A stretch of DNA of 64,000 nt, from positions 682,001 through 746,000 of the forward strand of contig NZ_FOKW01000001.1 of NCBI RefSeq assembly GCF_900112205.1, written 5' to 3'. The notes below the pieces were generated by a model that saw nothing but the letters and a program-made list of their open reading frames with translations, was not told where the DNA came from and did not search any database. This document shows, one piece after another, positions 7,275 to 39,247 of the stretch (the first letter of the stretch is position 1; the number at the start of each line of letters is the position of its first letter). This stretch comes from Natronobacterium haloterrestre. GTDB lineage: Archaea; Halobacteriota; Halobacteria; Halobacteriales; Natrialbaceae. The translations under genes and the position numbers were made by a program.

Positions 7275-8261
7275 ATGAAAGCCACCGCGATGGCCCACCC
7301 GATCCAGGGCCTGGTGAAGTACCACGGGATGCGAGACGACATCGAGCGGCTCCCCTACCACGACAGCATCAGCGTCTGTACGGCGCCGAGCCACACCCGG
7401 ACGACCGTCGAGTTCTCCATGGACTACGACGAGGACACCTTCGTCGTCGACGGCGAGGAACTCGAGGGCCGCGCTCACGAGCGCGTCGAGGCCGTCGTCG
7501 AGAAGGCCCGCTCGCGGTCCGACGCGGCCCACACCGTCTACCCCGTCCGCCTCGAGAGCGAGAACAGCTTCCCGACGAACGTCGGGCTGGGCTCCTCGTC
7601 GTCGGGCTTCGCCGCGGCGGCGATGGCCTTGGCCGAGGCGGCGGAACTCGACGCCTCGCGCGAGGAGATCTCGACGATCGCTCGGGTGGGCTCCGCCTCG
7701 GCGGCCCGCGCAGTGACGGGTGCCTTCTCGCAACTGCACACCGGCATGAACGACGAGGACTGTCGCTCCCGGCGCATCCCCTCCAATCTCCACGAGGACC
7801 TGAAGATCATCGTCGGACTCGTCCCCTACCACAAGGAGACCGAGGACGCCCACGACGAGGCCGAAGACAGTCACATGTTCCAGGCTCGCAACGCCCACAT
7901 CCACGAACAGATCGCGAAGATGCGCGACTCGCTGCGCAACGACGACTTCGACTCGGCGTTCGAACTCGCCGAACACGACTCGCTGTCGCTCGCGGCGACG
8001 ACCATGACCGGCCCCGAAGGGTGGGTCTACTGGCAGCCCGCGACGCTCGCCATCTTCAACCGCGTGCGCGAACTCCGGGAAGAGGAGGACATCCCCGTCT
8101 ACTTCTCGACCGACACCGGCGCGAGCGTCTACGTCAACACGACCGAGGAACACGCCGAGTACGTCGAGGAGGAGATCAGCGACACCGGCGTCTCGACGAC
8201 CATCTGGGACGTCGGCGGCCCCGCACGCCTGCTCGAGGACGAGGACGACCACCTCTTCTGA
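7275..8261 (+). CDS. mvaD: Phosphomevalonate/diphosphomevalonate decarboxylase
   Basis: A 328-residue GHMP-superfamily enzyme of the archaeal isoprenoid (mevalonate) pathway. The glycine/serine-rich phosphate loop is FPTNVGLGSSSSGFAAAA (99-116), and the MKATAMAHPIQGLVKYHG opening and the DTGASVYV segment near the C terminus are characteristic. In Haloferax the orthologous enzyme acts as phosphomevalonate decarboxylase, making isopentenyl phosphate for isopentenyl phosphate kinase; by homology the same role is likely here, in archaeal lipid and carotenoid/retinal precursor supply. No other mevalonate gene is adjacent. The start is fixed by a TATA-like box about 28 bases upstream. Confidence 0.9.
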   Translation: MKATAMAHPIQGLVKYHGMRDDIERLPYHDSISVCTAPSHTRTTVEFSMDYDEDTFVVDGEELEGRAHERVEAVVEKARSRSDAAHTVYPVRLESENSFPTNVGLGSSSSGFAAAAMALAEAAELDASREEISTIARVGSASAARAVTGAFSQLHTGMNDEDCRSRRIPSNLHEDLKIIVGLVPYHKETEDAHDEAEDSHMFQARNAHIHEQIAKMRDSLRNDDFDSAFELAEHDSLSLAATTMTGPEGWVYWQPATLAIFNRVRELREEEDIPVYFSTDTGASVYVNTTEEHAEYVEEEISDTGVSTTIWDVGGPARLLEDEDDHLF

Positions 8262-8321
8262 GAACCTACCTCCGAAGGCGTATCGAGACCATTACGATCA
8301 TTGACGTTCGCTGTTCCACCG

Positions 8322-9074
8322 TCAATGTCCCCCCAACACGCGACGATACTGTCGATCGGCCCACTCTACCGCGTCCGCAGTGTCGTTAACGAGAATCCCG
8401 GCAATTCCGCGATCGGTAAAGACTGAAACAGCCGCGCGTTCGTCATCACAGATCCAAATGTCGAACGAAAACGGAATCAGCGCATGGTGGACATGTACGT
8501 CCTTATCTTCACGTAACGTGGTTGTGATCGACGGATACGCTGACTGGAATTCTTCGTATACGGTTTCCGGAACGACGATATCGAAGGTTGCGCTGTCACC
8601 GGTTGTCGACTGTTGATAGAGCCGTTCGACGTGTCCAGCAATCAGTTTCGGTGCTACAGCACGCACGTGAGTGGCCGCTCCAACGCACTCGACTAATGTC
8701 GACAGGACGGAATCAGGTATTTCGGGCTGGCTCCGGTGGACGTTCGCTCCGTCGACGAATACAAGACTTAGCTCAGTTCCAGAATCCAACTCGTCGAGGA
8801 CTGGCGAGAGTTCAGTGAGACTGGCGAGTCGCCCCCGGTATTCTTGATGTGCACGGTAGGCCAACCTACCGGAGTACGTCGGTTGCCAGCGCCCATCACG
8901 GTATTCGACGAGTCCATCGGATTCCAATTCCCGGACGATATCGTCGAGCGTTGACCGGGGTATCTCGAGCGCGTCGACTAATTCACGCTTCGTCCGGGCC
9001 TGCTCTACGAGCGCTTGAAGGCACCGGTACCGCTTCTGAAGGGTTTCGGAGAGACGATCGGCTGCTGCAAGCAT
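8322..9074 (-). CDS. HTH transcriptional regulator with FilR1-type domain
   Basis: A 250-residue regulator. Residues about 15-75 form a winged helix-turn-helix (TKRELVDALEIPRSTLDDIV, then a short wing ending WQPTYSGRLAY). The remainder resembles the middle/C-terminal domain of methanogenesis regulator FilR1 (DUF1724), with a conserved IPFSFDIWICDDERAAVSVF segment. Ligand unknown. The base composition is clearly less GC-rich than in mvaD next door, and the gene starts an AT-richer islet. The divergent intergenic region contains a strong AT run (TATATATAATT near 9112) suitable as its promoter. It may control the secreted-protein cassette that diverges from it (inference). Confidence 0.8.
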   Translation of the reverse strand: MLAAADRLSETLQKRYRCLQALVEQARTKRELVDALEIPRSTLDDIVRELESDGLVEYRDGRWQPTYSGRLAYRAHQEYRGRLASLTELSPVLDELDSGTELSLVFVDGANVHRSQPEIPDSVLSTLVECVGAATHVRAVAPKLIAGHVERLYQQSTTGDSATFDIVVPETVYEEFQSAYPSITTTLREDKDVHVHHALIPFSFDIWICDDERAAVSVFTDRGIAGILVNDTADAVEWADRQYRRVLGGH

Positions 9075-9352
9075 TACTCACATCTACTGGATCAGAATCA
9101 ATAACGTCTAGCTATATATAATTGCCAATAGAAATTTATCAGCCAGAATGGGTCCCCATGTGAGAACCTCTCTAAGGACCCCGTTCGTATCGGGATCGTC
9201 TCGATCGGCCTTTCAAAAGATGCCGAGTTCGTAGTAGGGGGTGGTCAAGTTTCGTCATTATTCCTCTTCCCCGTCGTTCCATAATATATCCGTAAAATAG
9301 TAATTGAATAGTATGAATTACCAGTAGGCCAATATTCGTACTGTGGTTCGTA
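9075..9352. other. AT-rich divergent intergenic region of the islet
   Basis: About 280 bases between the FilR1-type regulator and the exported-protein gene. It is the most AT-rich stretch of the window, with TATATATAATT at about 9112 (facing the regulator) and CCATAATATATCC plus AATATTCG (about 9281 and 9331) facing the plus-strand gene. No RNA gene or convincing small reading frame is seen. It probably holds both promoters and any operator for the divergent unit. Confidence 0.45.
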
Positions 9353-10102
9353 ATGTCAGACCACAAATTTAGTGGCACACGGCGCAGCATCCTCCAGTCT
9401 ATCGCTGGACTGAGCGTGCTGTCGATCGGGGCCACTGGCACTGGAACGGCTGCGATAGATCCCAGCGAACTCAACCGGGACACTGTTCAGTTCGTTGAGG
9501 TCACTGAAGAGTACGATGTGCCGGCCGACGTCCCCAGAGCAGCACGGAACGGAACCGCTGGATACGCGGTGGATCGAGAACGGAACATCGTCACCCTGAC
9601 CAACGCCTCGATGGCGTCGTTCACGCCAGATACCGTCGCTACCACCGCTGACGGAAGCTATTACGCGACCGATACGCGGATCTCGGTTACGGGACGCAAC
9701 CGCGGACTTCCGGTCGATACGAACTACCGCGATCTCGGAGCGACGCACGCGATTTTCGACGAAAAACAGCCGGAGAGACCGGTACAGGTTCAGGCAGACG
9801 GCGATCGGATCCGAGTCGCCAGCGATGATCTCGATTTCGACGTTCCGGTCGGGACGGAAGCGGCTGAGACGGAAACCGTTGGATCGCTCGAACGAACGGT
9901 TCGGGTTCGTAATCACGGAACGATGACGGTCTTTGGACACGACGACTATCTGATCTTCCCGGTCGGATCGAACGACTTCTACGCGCGTGCTCGCGTCGAT
10001 TCGATCCGTGCCCTCGCACAGGAGCACGTCTCGGACATCGAGGATGTCGATCTCATCACGGTCCCGAAGTCGCTTGCCGTTACCAAAGGAGGGGGTGAGT
10101 AA
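9353..10102 (+). CDS. Tat-exported hypothetical protein
   Basis: A 249-residue protein with a twin-arginine signal: TRRSILQSIAGLSVLSIG near residue 9, followed by an AlaThr-rich cleavage region ending about residue 34. The mature part is beta-strand-rich, without cysteine or a motif I recognise. The stop codon is followed after one base by the ATG of the metzincin-like gene, so the two are almost certainly co-transcribed. Reasonable possibilities are a chaperone, propeptide or inhibitor for that protease, or the effector itself; none is demonstrated. Codon choice is less GC-rich than in the flanking core genes, suggesting recent acquisition. Confidence 0.7.
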   Translation: MSDHKFSGTRRSILQSIAGLSVLSIGATGTGTAAIDPSELNRDTVQFVEVTEEYDVPADVPRAARNGTAGYAVDRERNIVTLTNASMASFTPDTVATTADGSYYATDTRISVTGRNRGLPVDTNYRDLGATHAIFDEKQPERPVQVQADGDRIRVASDDLDFDVPVGTEAAETETVGSLERTVRVRNHGTMTVFGHDDYLIFPVGSNDFYARARVDSIRALAQEHVSDIEDVDLITVPKSLAVTKGGGE

Positions 10103-10103
10103 A

Positions 10104-10862
10104 ATGGAGCGAGCAGTCGATACGACGACGGTCGATGGGGTGGTCGAATCACGGACGATCTGGCCGAGAGAAGACGTCACAAGCGAGCAAGCGATGCGTC
10201 TCCGTTCGAGTTCCGTCGGCGTACAGCTCGTCGGAACGGAGCCGTTCTGGGACAACCAAGAGTGGAGTCGAATGAGCGACATCCAAGACTGGGTCTCGGA
10301 TGCGTAGAGCTCACACATCGAGGATGGGAGCGGCGATTACGAGGCCTGGTTTACGGCCCAGGGTCCCGCCGGTGTGACGGTTCCCGCGTCCGAGCTCCCC
10401 GACGAAAACGACCTCTCCGAGAGATTATACGATAGCGACGATTACCTCAAAGACAACGAAGACGGACTATACGACGGTGCCGACTCGATCGTTGTCGTCG
10501 ATTACTACGGCGACGACAACAACACCTACGGTTGGGGGTACATCGGCACTGCCGGAAACAACGACAATATCTGTGGGTTGGTAGATGTTCACCACGAAGA
10601 CAACAACAATCTCCCATCGGAACTGTCGCGTGTCGAATCGGACGGGGTAGCGTTCCACGAACTCCTTCACGTCTACGATTCGGAGCATTCGGACGACGTC
10701 AGTACGTACGATACGCCGTCCTGGCAGTCCGACGAGATCAGCCTGATGTACAGCTGGGACGGCGTCGATTGCAACGATCAGGGCGATACGGAAGTGATCG
10801 AAAACAGGGTAAGTAGTTGTACAAAGAGTAGCGTTCGTTCCTACATCGATAGCAACTTCTGA
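10104..10862 (+). pseudogene. Metzincin-like zinc metallopeptidase interrupted by in-frame TAG
   Basis: One frame of 253 codons begins at ATG 10104 and ends at TGA 10860-10862, but codon 68 (10305-10307) is TAG. Both halves are protein-like with no frameshift. The downstream part contains FHELLHVYDSEH, an HExxHxxxxxH zinc site with metzincin spacing, followed about 30 residues later by SLMYSWDG, which fits the Met-turn. No signal peptide is seen in the first half. It could be a nonsense-inactivated gene, a sequencing error, or a readthrough or reinitiation product (a GTG lies at 10374). It is tightly linked to the upstream Tat-exported protein. Confidence 0.65.
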
Positions 10863-10863
10863 G

Positions 10864-10888
10864 ACCGACTATTACCCGTCGGTTTTTT
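10864..10888 (+). terminator. Hairpin plus T-run terminator
   Basis: Directly after the metzincin-like stop codon, ACCGAC and GTCGGT form a 6-bp stem with an 8-base loop (10864-10883), running into six T residues (10883-10888). T-rich tails are normal archaeal termination signals; the additional hairpin looks bacterial. It sits between convergent genes, so it may serve the plus-strand cassette. Confidence 0.55.
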
Positions 10889-11507
10889 AAGCACGCTCGT
10901 CCGTCTCTGATTCCTCACCTGCTTCGAGTCGAACGAGTGCGATGCAAGCGATTCTGTCGCTTTCCCGTTCGGGATCGGGAACAGTTAGTTCCATCGCGTA
11001 CAGTCCCGGATCGAGATCGGGTTCCTCACGAACCGCAGTGACTGCGTCGACGAGCGACCAGGTATGTGTCTCGCCGGCCGAGACGGTCAGGGTTCCGTTA
11101 CCGGCCCGATCTTGTTGTAGTTCGCGCCACCCCGATCCCGAGTCGGAGCGGAGCTGCCAACTGTACGGATTGAACGTGAGTTCGCTGTCGGAGCGGTTGT
11201 GAAGCGTCAGCGTTACCTCGCTTTCGGGCGTTCCGTCGACTACGGTACTGCGTCTCGGACTCGGCTCGAGAAATACCGTTGCCGAGTCCGGATCGACGGT
11301 ATGTGAGCAGACGACTCGGTCGTGGTCGGTTTCGTACGGTGGACACGACTGTGCGTCGATATCGGGAATTGCCGATTCAGTGTCGTCCATGGACGCTGTT
11401 GACTCCGTGTCACTCGGATCGTCGGCGGTGTTGTTTTCACCGAGACAGCCAGCGAGGCCGAGGAGGGCTCCGAAACTGGCGCGTTCGAGGACGCGACGGC
11501 GATGCAT
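10887..11507 (-). CDS. Tat-type lipoprotein, hypothetical
   Basis: I start at MHRRRVLERASFG (ATG 11507), giving 206 residues; an ATG 21 bases upstream is also possible. A twin-arginine motif is followed by a hydrophobic segment and the lipobox LGLAGC, so the protein should be anchored outside the membrane through a lipidated cysteine. After an acidic Ser/Thr/Asp linker, an immunoglobulin-like beta domain (VTLTLHNRSDSELTFNPYSW) follows, a pattern common in haloarchaeal surface lipoproteins. No enzymatic motif is seen. It closes the AT-richer islet. Confidence 0.75.
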   Translation of the reverse strand: MHRRRVLERASFGALLGLAGCLGENNTADDPSDTESTASMDDTESAIPDIDAQSCPPYETDHDRVVCSHTVDPDSATVFLEPSPRRSTVVDGTPESEVTLTLHNRSDSELTFNPYSWQLRSDSGSGWRELQQDRAGNGTLTVSAGETHTWSLVDAVTAVREEPDLDPGLYAMELTVPDPERESDRIACIALVRLEAGEESETDERA

Positions 11508-11584
11508 ATCAAAGACTACACCAGCCATTTGTAAATACGCTATGCTAAGTGAAAGAATCGTTTGAGCAACGTCGTCGAGAGCGA

Positions 11585-12715
11585 CTATCCTTCGAGCGGC
11601 CGCCAGGTGCGCGGCGAGTCGTTCAGCCGCTCGTAGCCGTCCTCGGTGACGACCACCAGATCCTCGATCCGGACGCCGAACTCGCCCTCGAGGTAGACGC
11701 CCGGTTCGACGCTGAAGACCATCCCTGGCTCGAGTTCACGGTCGTTGCCCGCGGTGATGTAGGGCGGCTCGTGGACGTCCAGGCCGACGCCGTGGCCCGT
11801 CCGATGGATGAATTCGTCGCCGTACCCTCGCTCCTCGAGGACGTCGCGGGCGATCCGGTCGATCTCCTCGGCCGGGACGCCGGGCTGGACGGCCTCGATG
11901 GCTTCGTCGTGGGCCTCGAGGACGGCGTCGTGGACTTCCTCGAACTCCGCCGGTGGTTCGCCGTCGAAGACGACGGTGCGGGTCTGGTCGCCCGGATAGC
12001 CGCCGGCCCGGGTGCCGAAGTCGAGGACGACCGGGTCGCCGGCCCCGATCGTTCGATCGCCGCTGCGGTGGTGGGGCCGCGCCCCGTTCGGCCCGGAGCC
12101 GACGACGGTCTCGAAGGAGACCCCTTCGCCGCCCGCGTCGGCGAGTCGCTCCTCGATCTCGGCCGCGAGTTCGTCTTCGGTCATGCCGATCGCCTCGGCC
12201 CCGAGCGCGCGGATCTCCTCGCTGACGGTATCGGAGATTTCGGCGGCCTCGCGCAGGGCCTCGAGTTCGACCTCGTCCTTGCGGAGGCGCAGTTCATCGG
12301 TGACCTCGCTGGCCAGGCCGAACGAGGCCTCGGGGAACGCCGCGCGGAGGTCCTGGGTGAAAAGCGCCCACATCCGATCGTCGACCAGCAACTGGCCGCC
12401 CTCGAGGTCGAGTTCCTCGCCGACCCGTTCGACCAGCGCGACCGGGTCGTCGCCGTCGCTCCACGTGCGGATGTCGGCCACGGGCGAGGCGTCACGGAGC
12501 TGGTCGTCGTACATCTCGGGGGCGACGAACAGCGCGCGGTCGGGCGTGACGAACAGGAACAGGTGTCGTTCCATCGGCTCCTCCTCGAACCCCGAGAGGT
12601 AGCCCATGTTCGAACTCGGGAAACAGACGAGGGCGTCGATCCCTCGCTCCGAGAGGCGTTCGCGGGCGCGCTCGAGTCGACGCTTGACGACGTCGTCGGA
12701 CTGATCCGTGGTCAT
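11585..12715 (-). CDS. M24 family Xaa-Pro aminopeptidase/dipeptidase
   Basis: A 376-residue pita-bread metallopeptidase. An N-terminal creatinase-like domain (to about residue 140) is followed by the catalytic domain with the dinuclear metal ligands in order: Asp in VVLDFGTRAGGYPGDQT (two ligands), His in HRTGHGVGLDVHEPP, Glu in VFSVEPGVY and Glu in FGVRIEDLVV. The family removes N-terminal residues before proline or cleaves Xaa-Pro dipeptides; cytoplasmic. The length is standard. It is divergent from the NDH-2-like gene with about 90 bases between the starts. Confidence 0.92.
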   Translation of the reverse strand: MTTDQSDDVVKRRLERARERLSERGIDALVCFPSSNMGYLSGFEEEPMERHLFLFVTPDRALFVAPEMYDDQLRDASPVADIRTWSDGDDPVALVERVGEELDLEGGQLLVDDRMWALFTQDLRAAFPEASFGLASEVTDELRLRKDEVELEALREAAEISDTVSEEIRALGAEAIGMTEDELAAEIEERLADAGGEGVSFETVVGSGPNGARPHHRSGDRTIGAGDPVVLDFGTRAGGYPGDQTRTVVFDGEPPAEFEEVHDAVLEAHDEAIEAVQPGVPAEEIDRIARDVLEERGYGDEFIHRTGHGVGLDVHEPPYITAGNDRELEPGMVFSVEPGVYLEGEFGVRIEDLVVVTEDGYERLNDSPRTWRPLEG

Positions 12716-38425: not shown

Positions 38426-39247
38426 GTGCAACTGGTCGGATACGAGCCGAGCGGTCGGGGGTCGGCGCTGTTGCTCGCCGCCGGCGACGGTCCGGTCGAC
38501 CGGCGCGAACTCGCCGCCGGCGATCGCCTCTCGTACTCGCTTGGTACTCGTCGCTGTGCAGGGACGATCGACGACGGCGACCACGTCGCCTGCGATCGCC
38601 CGAGCGCGCCCTACTGCGAGTACCACACGGACACCTGGGTCTGTGCCCGCTGTACCGGCACCTGCCTGAAAGCGGAGATGGACTGCTACGAGGAGCACGC
38701 GGTCTATCTCGCGGCATTCGCCCCGGGGACGTTCAAAGTGGGCGTCACCCGCGAGTGGCGACTCGAGACGCGGCTCCGCGAACAGGGGGCCGACCGGGCG
38801 GCCCACCTCTATACGGTCTCGAACGGCCGAATCGCCCGCGAGATCGAGGCCGAAATCGCACGCCTACTCACCGACAGGGTCCGGACCGGGCCGAAGGTCG
38901 CCGCGCTCGCGAGCGAGGTCGACGAGGACGCCTGGGCGGCGACGCTCGCGGAGCTAGAGGGGTTCGTCGCCGACGCCGAAATCGACTTCGAGTTCGATCC
39001 CGCCGCCGAGGACCTCGAGCGCGGCGTCCGCGAGGAGTTCGCCTTCGACTACGGGATCGATCTCGAGACCCGTCCCGTCCGGGAGACGATCGCGAGCGGG
39101 ACCGTCGTCGGCGTCAAGGGCCGACTGCTCGTCCTCGAGAACGGCGGGACGATCTACGCGGTCGACATGCGCGACCTGGTCGGCTACGAACTCGAGGACG
39201 GGGGGACGGATCGGGAGCTTCAGTCGTCGCTGGGGTCGTTCGGCTGA
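38426..39247 (+). CDS. DUF2797 family protein
   Basis: A 273-residue protein starting at GTG 38426 (VQLVGYEPSG). A cysteine-rich N-terminal half (RRCAGTIDDGDHVACDRP, SAPYCEYH, WVCARCTGTCLK) probably binds zinc. The central segment YLAAFAPGTFKVGVTREWRL followed by LREQGADRA resembles a GIY-YIG-like nuclease core, as noted in findings. The C-terminal part is a small beta domain. The DUF2797 function is unknown. The gene is divergent from the BsuPI gene by 100 bases. Confidence 0.78.
   Translation: MQLVGYEPSGRGSALLLAAGDGPVDRRELAAGDRLSYSLGTRRCAGTIDDGDHVACDRPSAPYCEYHTDTWVCARCTGTCLKAEMDCYEEHAVYLAAFAPGTFKVGVTREWRLETRLREQGADRAAHLYTVSNGRIAREIEAEIARLLTDRVRTGPKVAALASEVDEDAWAATLAELEGFVADAEIDFEFDPAAEDLERGVREEFAFDYGIDLETRPVRETIASGTVVGVKGRLLVLENGGTIYAVDMRDLVGYELEDGGTDRELQSSLGSFG

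What the first reader, a model, noticed from the sequence alone, without database searches (positions are those of the whole stretch)
10104..10862. Metzincin-like protease frame broken only by one TAG
The 253-codon frame has HELLHVYDSEH and a Met-turn candidate, but codon 68 (10305-10307) is TAG with intact protein-like sequence on both sides and no frameshift. Nonsense inactivation, sequencing error, reinitiation at GTG 10374 and readthrough are all open. A pyrrolysine explanation is unlikely because Halobacteria generally lack that machinery, but it is not excluded by the sequence alone.
Basis: partly seen in the sequence, partly recalled or inferred. Interest (0 to 1): 0.7.

Follow-up and report, generated by a model that had tools for sequence, protein, structure and literature searches.

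The report
Stop-broken protease gene beside Tat partner
A salt-loving archaeon carries a protease gene broken, apparently recently, by one stop codon where its intact relatives have tryptophan; the break is ordinary, but the gene belongs to a little-described two-gene set in which a neighbour with an export tag may carry the untagged protease out of the cell.

Summary
In detail: window 10104-10862 is one frame broken only by TAG at codon 68. All 21 confident homologues have Trp there; TAG is one transition from the Trp codon. After the TAG the sequence shows no excess of window-specific changes (13 of 179 columns, against 24 and 28 in the two nearest homologues). No pyl gene passed its cut-off and no CTA-anticodon tRNA was found. 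Best reading: a young nonsense mutation; sequencing error or leaky readthrough cannot be excluded.

Beyond the finding: the gene is the second of a two-gene cassette inside a low-GC stretch of 3.3 kb that the closest relative held lacks. In this halobacterial metzincin-like family the protease either has its own twin-arginine (Tat) motif (6 of 22), or has none and follows a Tat-type partner gene almost without gap (14 of 22, two of these partners frameshifted), or is fused to that partner (2 of 22). None of the 22 has both. I infer that the partner carries the protease out through Tat ("hitchhiker"); this is untested.

The parts
10104..10862 (+). broken metzincin-like protease gene, second gene of the cassette; no signal peptide of its own seen
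   Evidence: homologues; no RR motif or strong hydrophobic run in the frame upstream of the match
10305..10307 (+). in-frame TAG, codon 68; Trp in all 21 confident homologues
10656..10688 (+). zinc-site motif HELLHVYDSEH
   Evidence: H185, E186, H189 invariant and H195 nearly so in A4
10746..10748 (+). Met-turn candidate (Met 215, nearly invariant in A4)
10374..10376 (+). GTG, possible but unlikely restart codon
9353..10102 (+). intact partner gene, 249 aa, twin-arginine motif TRRSIL near its N-terminus; one base lies between its stop and the protease ATG
8322..9074 (-). divergent HTH regulator (Pfam FilR1_middle and HVO_A0261_N above cut-off)
10887..11528 (-). convergent gene, lipoprotein-like (LAGC near the N-terminus, read by eye); no Pfam family above cut-off
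8260..11578 (.). low-GC stretch of 3319 bases absent from G001, the closest of four same-genus genomes held; its flanks align at 94-97% and enclose 916 bases without similarity to the window

Best explanation
A recent base change at the codon for an invariant tryptophan created TAG in the second gene of a horizontally acquired, Tat-linked two-gene cassette. Translation now ends after 67 residues, before the zinc site, so the cell most likely makes no active protease, while the upstream Tat-signal partner is still intact. Shown: the stop, the Trp in homologues, no visible decay after it, absence of the segment from the closest relative held, the recurring two-gene order. Inferred: that the stop is real in the organism, that it is young, that it abolishes activity, and that in intact relatives the partner protein binds the signal-less metzincin-like protein and carries it folded through the Tat pore.
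For: Trp at the TAG column in 21 of 21 confident homologues (20 distinct, L012 and L013 being identical); TGG read directly in 4 of 4 checked. A stop inside is listed for 2 of 21 matches (the window's TAG and a TGA in G198, a 62%-complete genome), and for the window's alone among 12 and 24. After the TAG, differences to L003 by codon position are 45/34/123 over 179 codons, and window-specific changes (13) are fewer than L003-specific (24) or L010-specific (28) ones; terminal branch 0.16 against 0.17 and 0.37. TAG ends 12 of 48 mechanically chosen ORFs of the window (some of the 48 are probably not genes), so it is not rare as a stop. PylS, PylB and PylC hits lie far below cut-off and PylD gave none. 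No CTA anticodon among the tRNAs found.
Against: No reads and no second strain were available, so an assembly error is open. The lack of decay after the stop is also what an error or a leaky, still used gene would show. A published analysis reports many in-frame stops in bacterial genes with dN/dS below 1 (PMC7918605, abstract and outline only). Horizontal gain is inferred; loss in relatives would leave the same gap.
Confidence: 0.75

Rival explanations
1. Sequencing or assembly error: the organism has a sense codon here and the gene is intact.
For: Everything else in the gene is intact and evolves no faster than in relatives; draft genome in 31 contigs.
Against: A single substitution error in a finished contig is uncommon (general knowledge, not tested here); long ORFs around it are open. 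Neither is decisive.
Confidence: 0.12
2. Leaky stop: near-cognate readthrough of TAG makes a small amount of full-length protease, so the frame downstream stays under selection.
For: No visible decay downstream; in-frame stops with dN/dS below 1 reported in bacteria (PMC7918605, abstract).
Against: None of the 21 confident homologues has a stop at this column, so nothing shows that the stop itself is kept; a young stop predicts the same downstream pattern.
Confidence: 0.1
3. Translation restarts at GTG 10374 and gives a working 162-aa protease.
For: The codon exists and the ORF is open.
Against: All 21 confident homologues carry the N-terminal stretch with the Trp, which the restart product would lack.
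Confidence: 0.02
4. TAG is decoded as pyrrolysine or by a suppressor tRNA.
For: None found; the sequence alone could not exclude it.
Against: PylS 30.8 bits against a cut-off of 178.15, PylB 20.1 against 348.2, PylC 28.5 against 248.3, PylD no match; 53 tRNA matches without CTA; the one tRNA-Trp-like place has CCA; TAG is a common ORF end in the window.
Confidence: 0.01

Closest known systems
Metzincin zinc proteases, M12B / Pfam Reprolysin models
   Same: HExxH with a further conserved His, and a conserved Met downstream; family member L020 passes the Reprolysin_3 cut-off (25.6 against 22.4 bits), L006, L021, L026 and L105 match below cut-off.
   Different: The window pieces, L003, L010, L011 and L015 match no metzincin model (NCBIfam none for the window and L003); the Gly of HExxHxxGxxH is Asp in the window and varies (Asp, Asn, Gly, others); most members have no signal of their own.
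Tat hitchhiker co-export (Rodrigue 1999, seen only as a reference entry in PMC6708511; heterodimer export also named in the abstract start of PMC10924467, listing)
   Same: One protein of an adjacent gene pair has the Tat signal and the other none.
   Different: Here the passenger would be a protease in archaea, and fused as well as self-signalled versions exist; co-export is inferred, not shown.
Young nonsense pseudogenes (general knowledge)
   Same: One stop, otherwise intact frame, intact homologues elsewhere.
   Different: Nothing unusual except that the stop replaces a residue invariant in the confident family members.

Membership tests
Metzincin | HExxHxxGxxH zinc motif (recalled definition) | tested here: inconclusive
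   HE..H and the last H present in the window, Gly position is Asp; 5 of 22 confident rows lack HExxH
Metzincin | Met-turn downstream of the motif (recalled definition) | tested here: inconclusive
   Met 215 nearly invariant in A4; the turn itself not shown
Metzincin | metzincin fold | tested here: inconclusive
   AlphaFold2 model from two sequences too poor (mean pLDDT 37.4); no fold search made
M12B Reprolysin Pfam models | score above curated cut-off | tested here: not met
   window pieces: no match; only homologue L020 passes
Tat hitchhiker pair | partner has an RR signal, passenger has no signal | tested here: met
   window and 11 of the other 13 partner-type rows; L009 and L022 partners are frameshifted; motif and hydropathy only, no signal-peptide predictor was run
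Tat hitchhiker pair | physical complex and co-export through Tat | not testable with these tools
   needs a bench test
Nonsense pseudogene | premature stop where intact homologues have a sense codon | tested here: met
Nonsense pseudogene | no functional product | not testable with these tools
   no proteomics
Pyrrolysine-decoded gene | pylS, pylB, pylC, pylD in the genome | tested here: not met
   in each, 1 of 14 control genomes passed the cut-off
Pyrrolysine-decoded gene | tRNA with anticodon CUA | tested here: not met
   an odd or intron-bearing tRNA could escape, as tRNA-Trp escaped

The most novel reading that the evidence does not exclude
This halobacterial metzincin-like family is an archaeal Tat co-export system: a dedicated Tat-signal partner escorts a signal-less, pre-folded protease out of the cell; in evolution the pair fuses into one protein, or the protease has its own Tat signal and no partner. 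The cassette moves between replicons and is broken again and again.
Probability: 0.5. Interest if true: 0.6.

Novelty: new variant of a known kind. Interest (0 to 1): 0.38.

Why it matters
The stop itself matters little beyond a warning not to annotate a recoded gene here. The cassette matters more. If the partner does carry the protease through Tat, it would be a protease hitchhiker pair in archaea with naturally fused and self-signalled relatives, which makes the idea 'one Tat signal per exported complex' testable by comparing relatives. I found no description of it in the open-access library searched: 'hitchhiker' + 'twin-arginine' + 'haloarchaea' and 'metzincin' + 'haloarchaea' gave 0 papers; 'hitchhiker' + 'Tat pathway' + 'archaea' gave 7, a five-term search on heterodimer/piggyback export gave 1, and 'haloarchaea' + 'metalloprotease' + 'twin-arginine' gave 7. 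Those 15 listings were seen as listings only, except passages of PMC6708511, so a description inside one of them, or in a subscription journal, could have been missed.

Tried and rejected
Structure: two AlphaFold2 jobs gave poor models (mean pLDDT 37.4 for the protease; 41.9 for the partner), so no fold search was made. The PDB sequence search gave only a weak match to fragilysin around the zinc motif (E 0.3) and one to a glycosyl transferase (E 0.93). PHROGs gave one match at E 0.042 of unknown function and PADLOC none.

Programmed frameshift fusing the two ORFs: considered and set aside, because stop and start lie differently from cassette to cassette. Fused genes: L104 aligns end to end with the split pair of L026; L023 is more distant (hhalign 93.7% and 92.3%).

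Limits of the Tat rule. Of the 7 weak or fragmentary matches outside the 22, three have their own RR motif (L095, L097, L098), one has a Tat partner (L096), two are fragments (L108, L110), and L109 shows neither signal nor partner in the DNA held, which counts against the rule if it is a true member. The partner profile also touched three self-signalled proteases weakly (L092, L011, L018; E 0.0006 to 0.004 in a small test set); for L011 the hhalign match covers 24 columns at the signal, and none of the three reached the six-frame threshold. The split into 22 and 7 was mine, made after seeing scores (rows kept: profile E of about 1e-12 or better in the searches or the script, and covering codon 68). 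A Halomarina plasmid match (L113), partial, was not among the 29 and was not classified. The tree has 8 open forks of 18; the three arrangements need at least 5 changes (shuffled mean 7.3, as low in 1 of 200).

Full report
What is there. The window (G000:C15:682001-746000) holds at 10104-10862 one frame of 252 codons plus its final stop, broken only by TAG at codon 68. The zinc motif HELLHVYDSEH and a downstream Met are present. The frame is not chance: an intact homologue on Halopiger xanaduensis SH-6 plasmid pHALXA02, annotated as a hypothetical protein, matches over residues 4-252 at 63%.

What stands at codon 68 elsewhere. Profile searches (order 392 genomes, family 125, class 391, overlapping sets) gave 21, 12 and 24 matches, together 29 distinct places, all in the window's own order. 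I treat 22 including the window as confident; the other 7 are weak or fragments, a division made after seeing scores. In the alignment of all 29 the 21 confident homologues all have Trp at the TAG column. Of the 7 others, five (L095, L096, L097, L098, L109) have no Trp there, their alignment being doubtful, and two fragments (L024/L108, L110) do not reach it properly. Four codons were read directly and are TGG.

Age of the stop. In 179 columns after the TAG shared by the window, L003 and L010, 93 are the same in all three; changes special to the window are 13, to L003 24, to L010 28. Window-L003 differences fall 45/34/123 on codon positions 1/2/3. Before the TAG (47 columns) the numbers are 6, 4 and 10, and in the partner gene (248 columns) 24, 27 and 51 (all). 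So no relaxed selection is visible. This fits a young stop, an error, or a leaky stop; it does not decide between them.

Recoding. PylS, PylB and PylC matches are far below cut-off and PylD has none; in each of these searches 1 of 14 control genomes passed the cut-off. Of 53 tRNA matches ARAGORN named 51, none with CTA; the other two seem to contain introns and read as CAT and TTG by eye. tRNA-Trp escaped that search; a pattern from memory found one place, with CCA. TAG ends 12 of 48 mechanically chosen ORFs in the window, among them the peptidase-like gene at 11585-12715, whose relative in G001 ends two codons earlier with TAA.

Where it came from. In G001, the closest of four same-genus genomes held, the flanks align at 97% (up to 8259) and 94% (from 11579) and enclose 916 bases without similarity. 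The window instead has 3319 bases of lower GC (about 0.49-0.61 against 0.65-0.72) with a FilR1-type regulator, the two-gene cassette and a lipoprotein-like gene. Relatives of the cassette are patchy; three plasmid records hold a match, one of them partial and outside the 29, and two genomes of different families share one copy identical over 3248 bases (L012, L013). The window's lineage gained the segment, or others lost or replaced it; gain is the simpler reading. A weak match exists in same-genus G003 at another place (L096).

The cassette. In 14 of the 22 confident members the protease has no RR motif followed by a hydrophobic run, and its likely ATG overlaps the end of an upstream gene by at most 11 bases or follows it by at most 2; the upstream genes form one loose family. 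In 12 of these 14 the partner has a Tat motif in frame; in L009 and L022 it is frameshifted. In 6 members the protease has its own RR motif and hydrophobic run and the partner profiles found nothing in the DNA held, about 1.5 kb each side. In 2 the partner domain and the protease are one protein; L104 aligns from end to end with the split pair of L026. None of the 22 has both. L109, a weak match, shows neither. Signals were judged by motif and hydropathy only. Tree: at least 5 changes between arrangements. I infer co-export of the folded pair by Tat. That the partner is an inhibitor or chaperone instead, or as well, is not excluded.

Repeated breakage. Besides the window, L022 has a TGA in the protease and a shifted partner, L009 has a shifted partner, and L110 looks like a broken relative of the fused gene in the same genome. 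Five confident rows, four distinct, lack HExxH. The cassette seems dispensable and often damaged; why is unknown. L022 comes from a 62%-complete genome, so errors are possible there.

Verdict. The TAG is best read as an ordinary young nonsense mutation; the surrounding two-gene Tat arrangement is the more interesting result and is testable.

Noticed in passing
G000:C17:15318-19504 (L059): Twelve tRNA genes lie within about 4.2 kb of one contig, some with anticodons also found elsewhere in the genome (for example Arg tcg, Glu ttc); possibly a mobile or viral tRNA cluster.
   Followed up: no
L009 / L112, Halorubrum hochsteinianum plasmid NZ_CP098416: The partner gene is split into two frames and annotated as two hypothetical proteins; a TnpB gene lies nearby.
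   Followed up: partly
L104 and L110 (G234:C5): One genome holds an intact fused partner-protease gene and a broken relative of it about 104 kb away on the same contig.
   Followed up: partly
L012, L013, L014, L016, L018: Five rows of the family (L012 and L013 identical) have lost the HExxH motif, so some may be non-enzymatic.
   Followed up: no
window 39071-39150: ARAGORN calls a tRNA-Gln here that the Rfam tRNA search did not list; possibly a false call.
   Followed up: no
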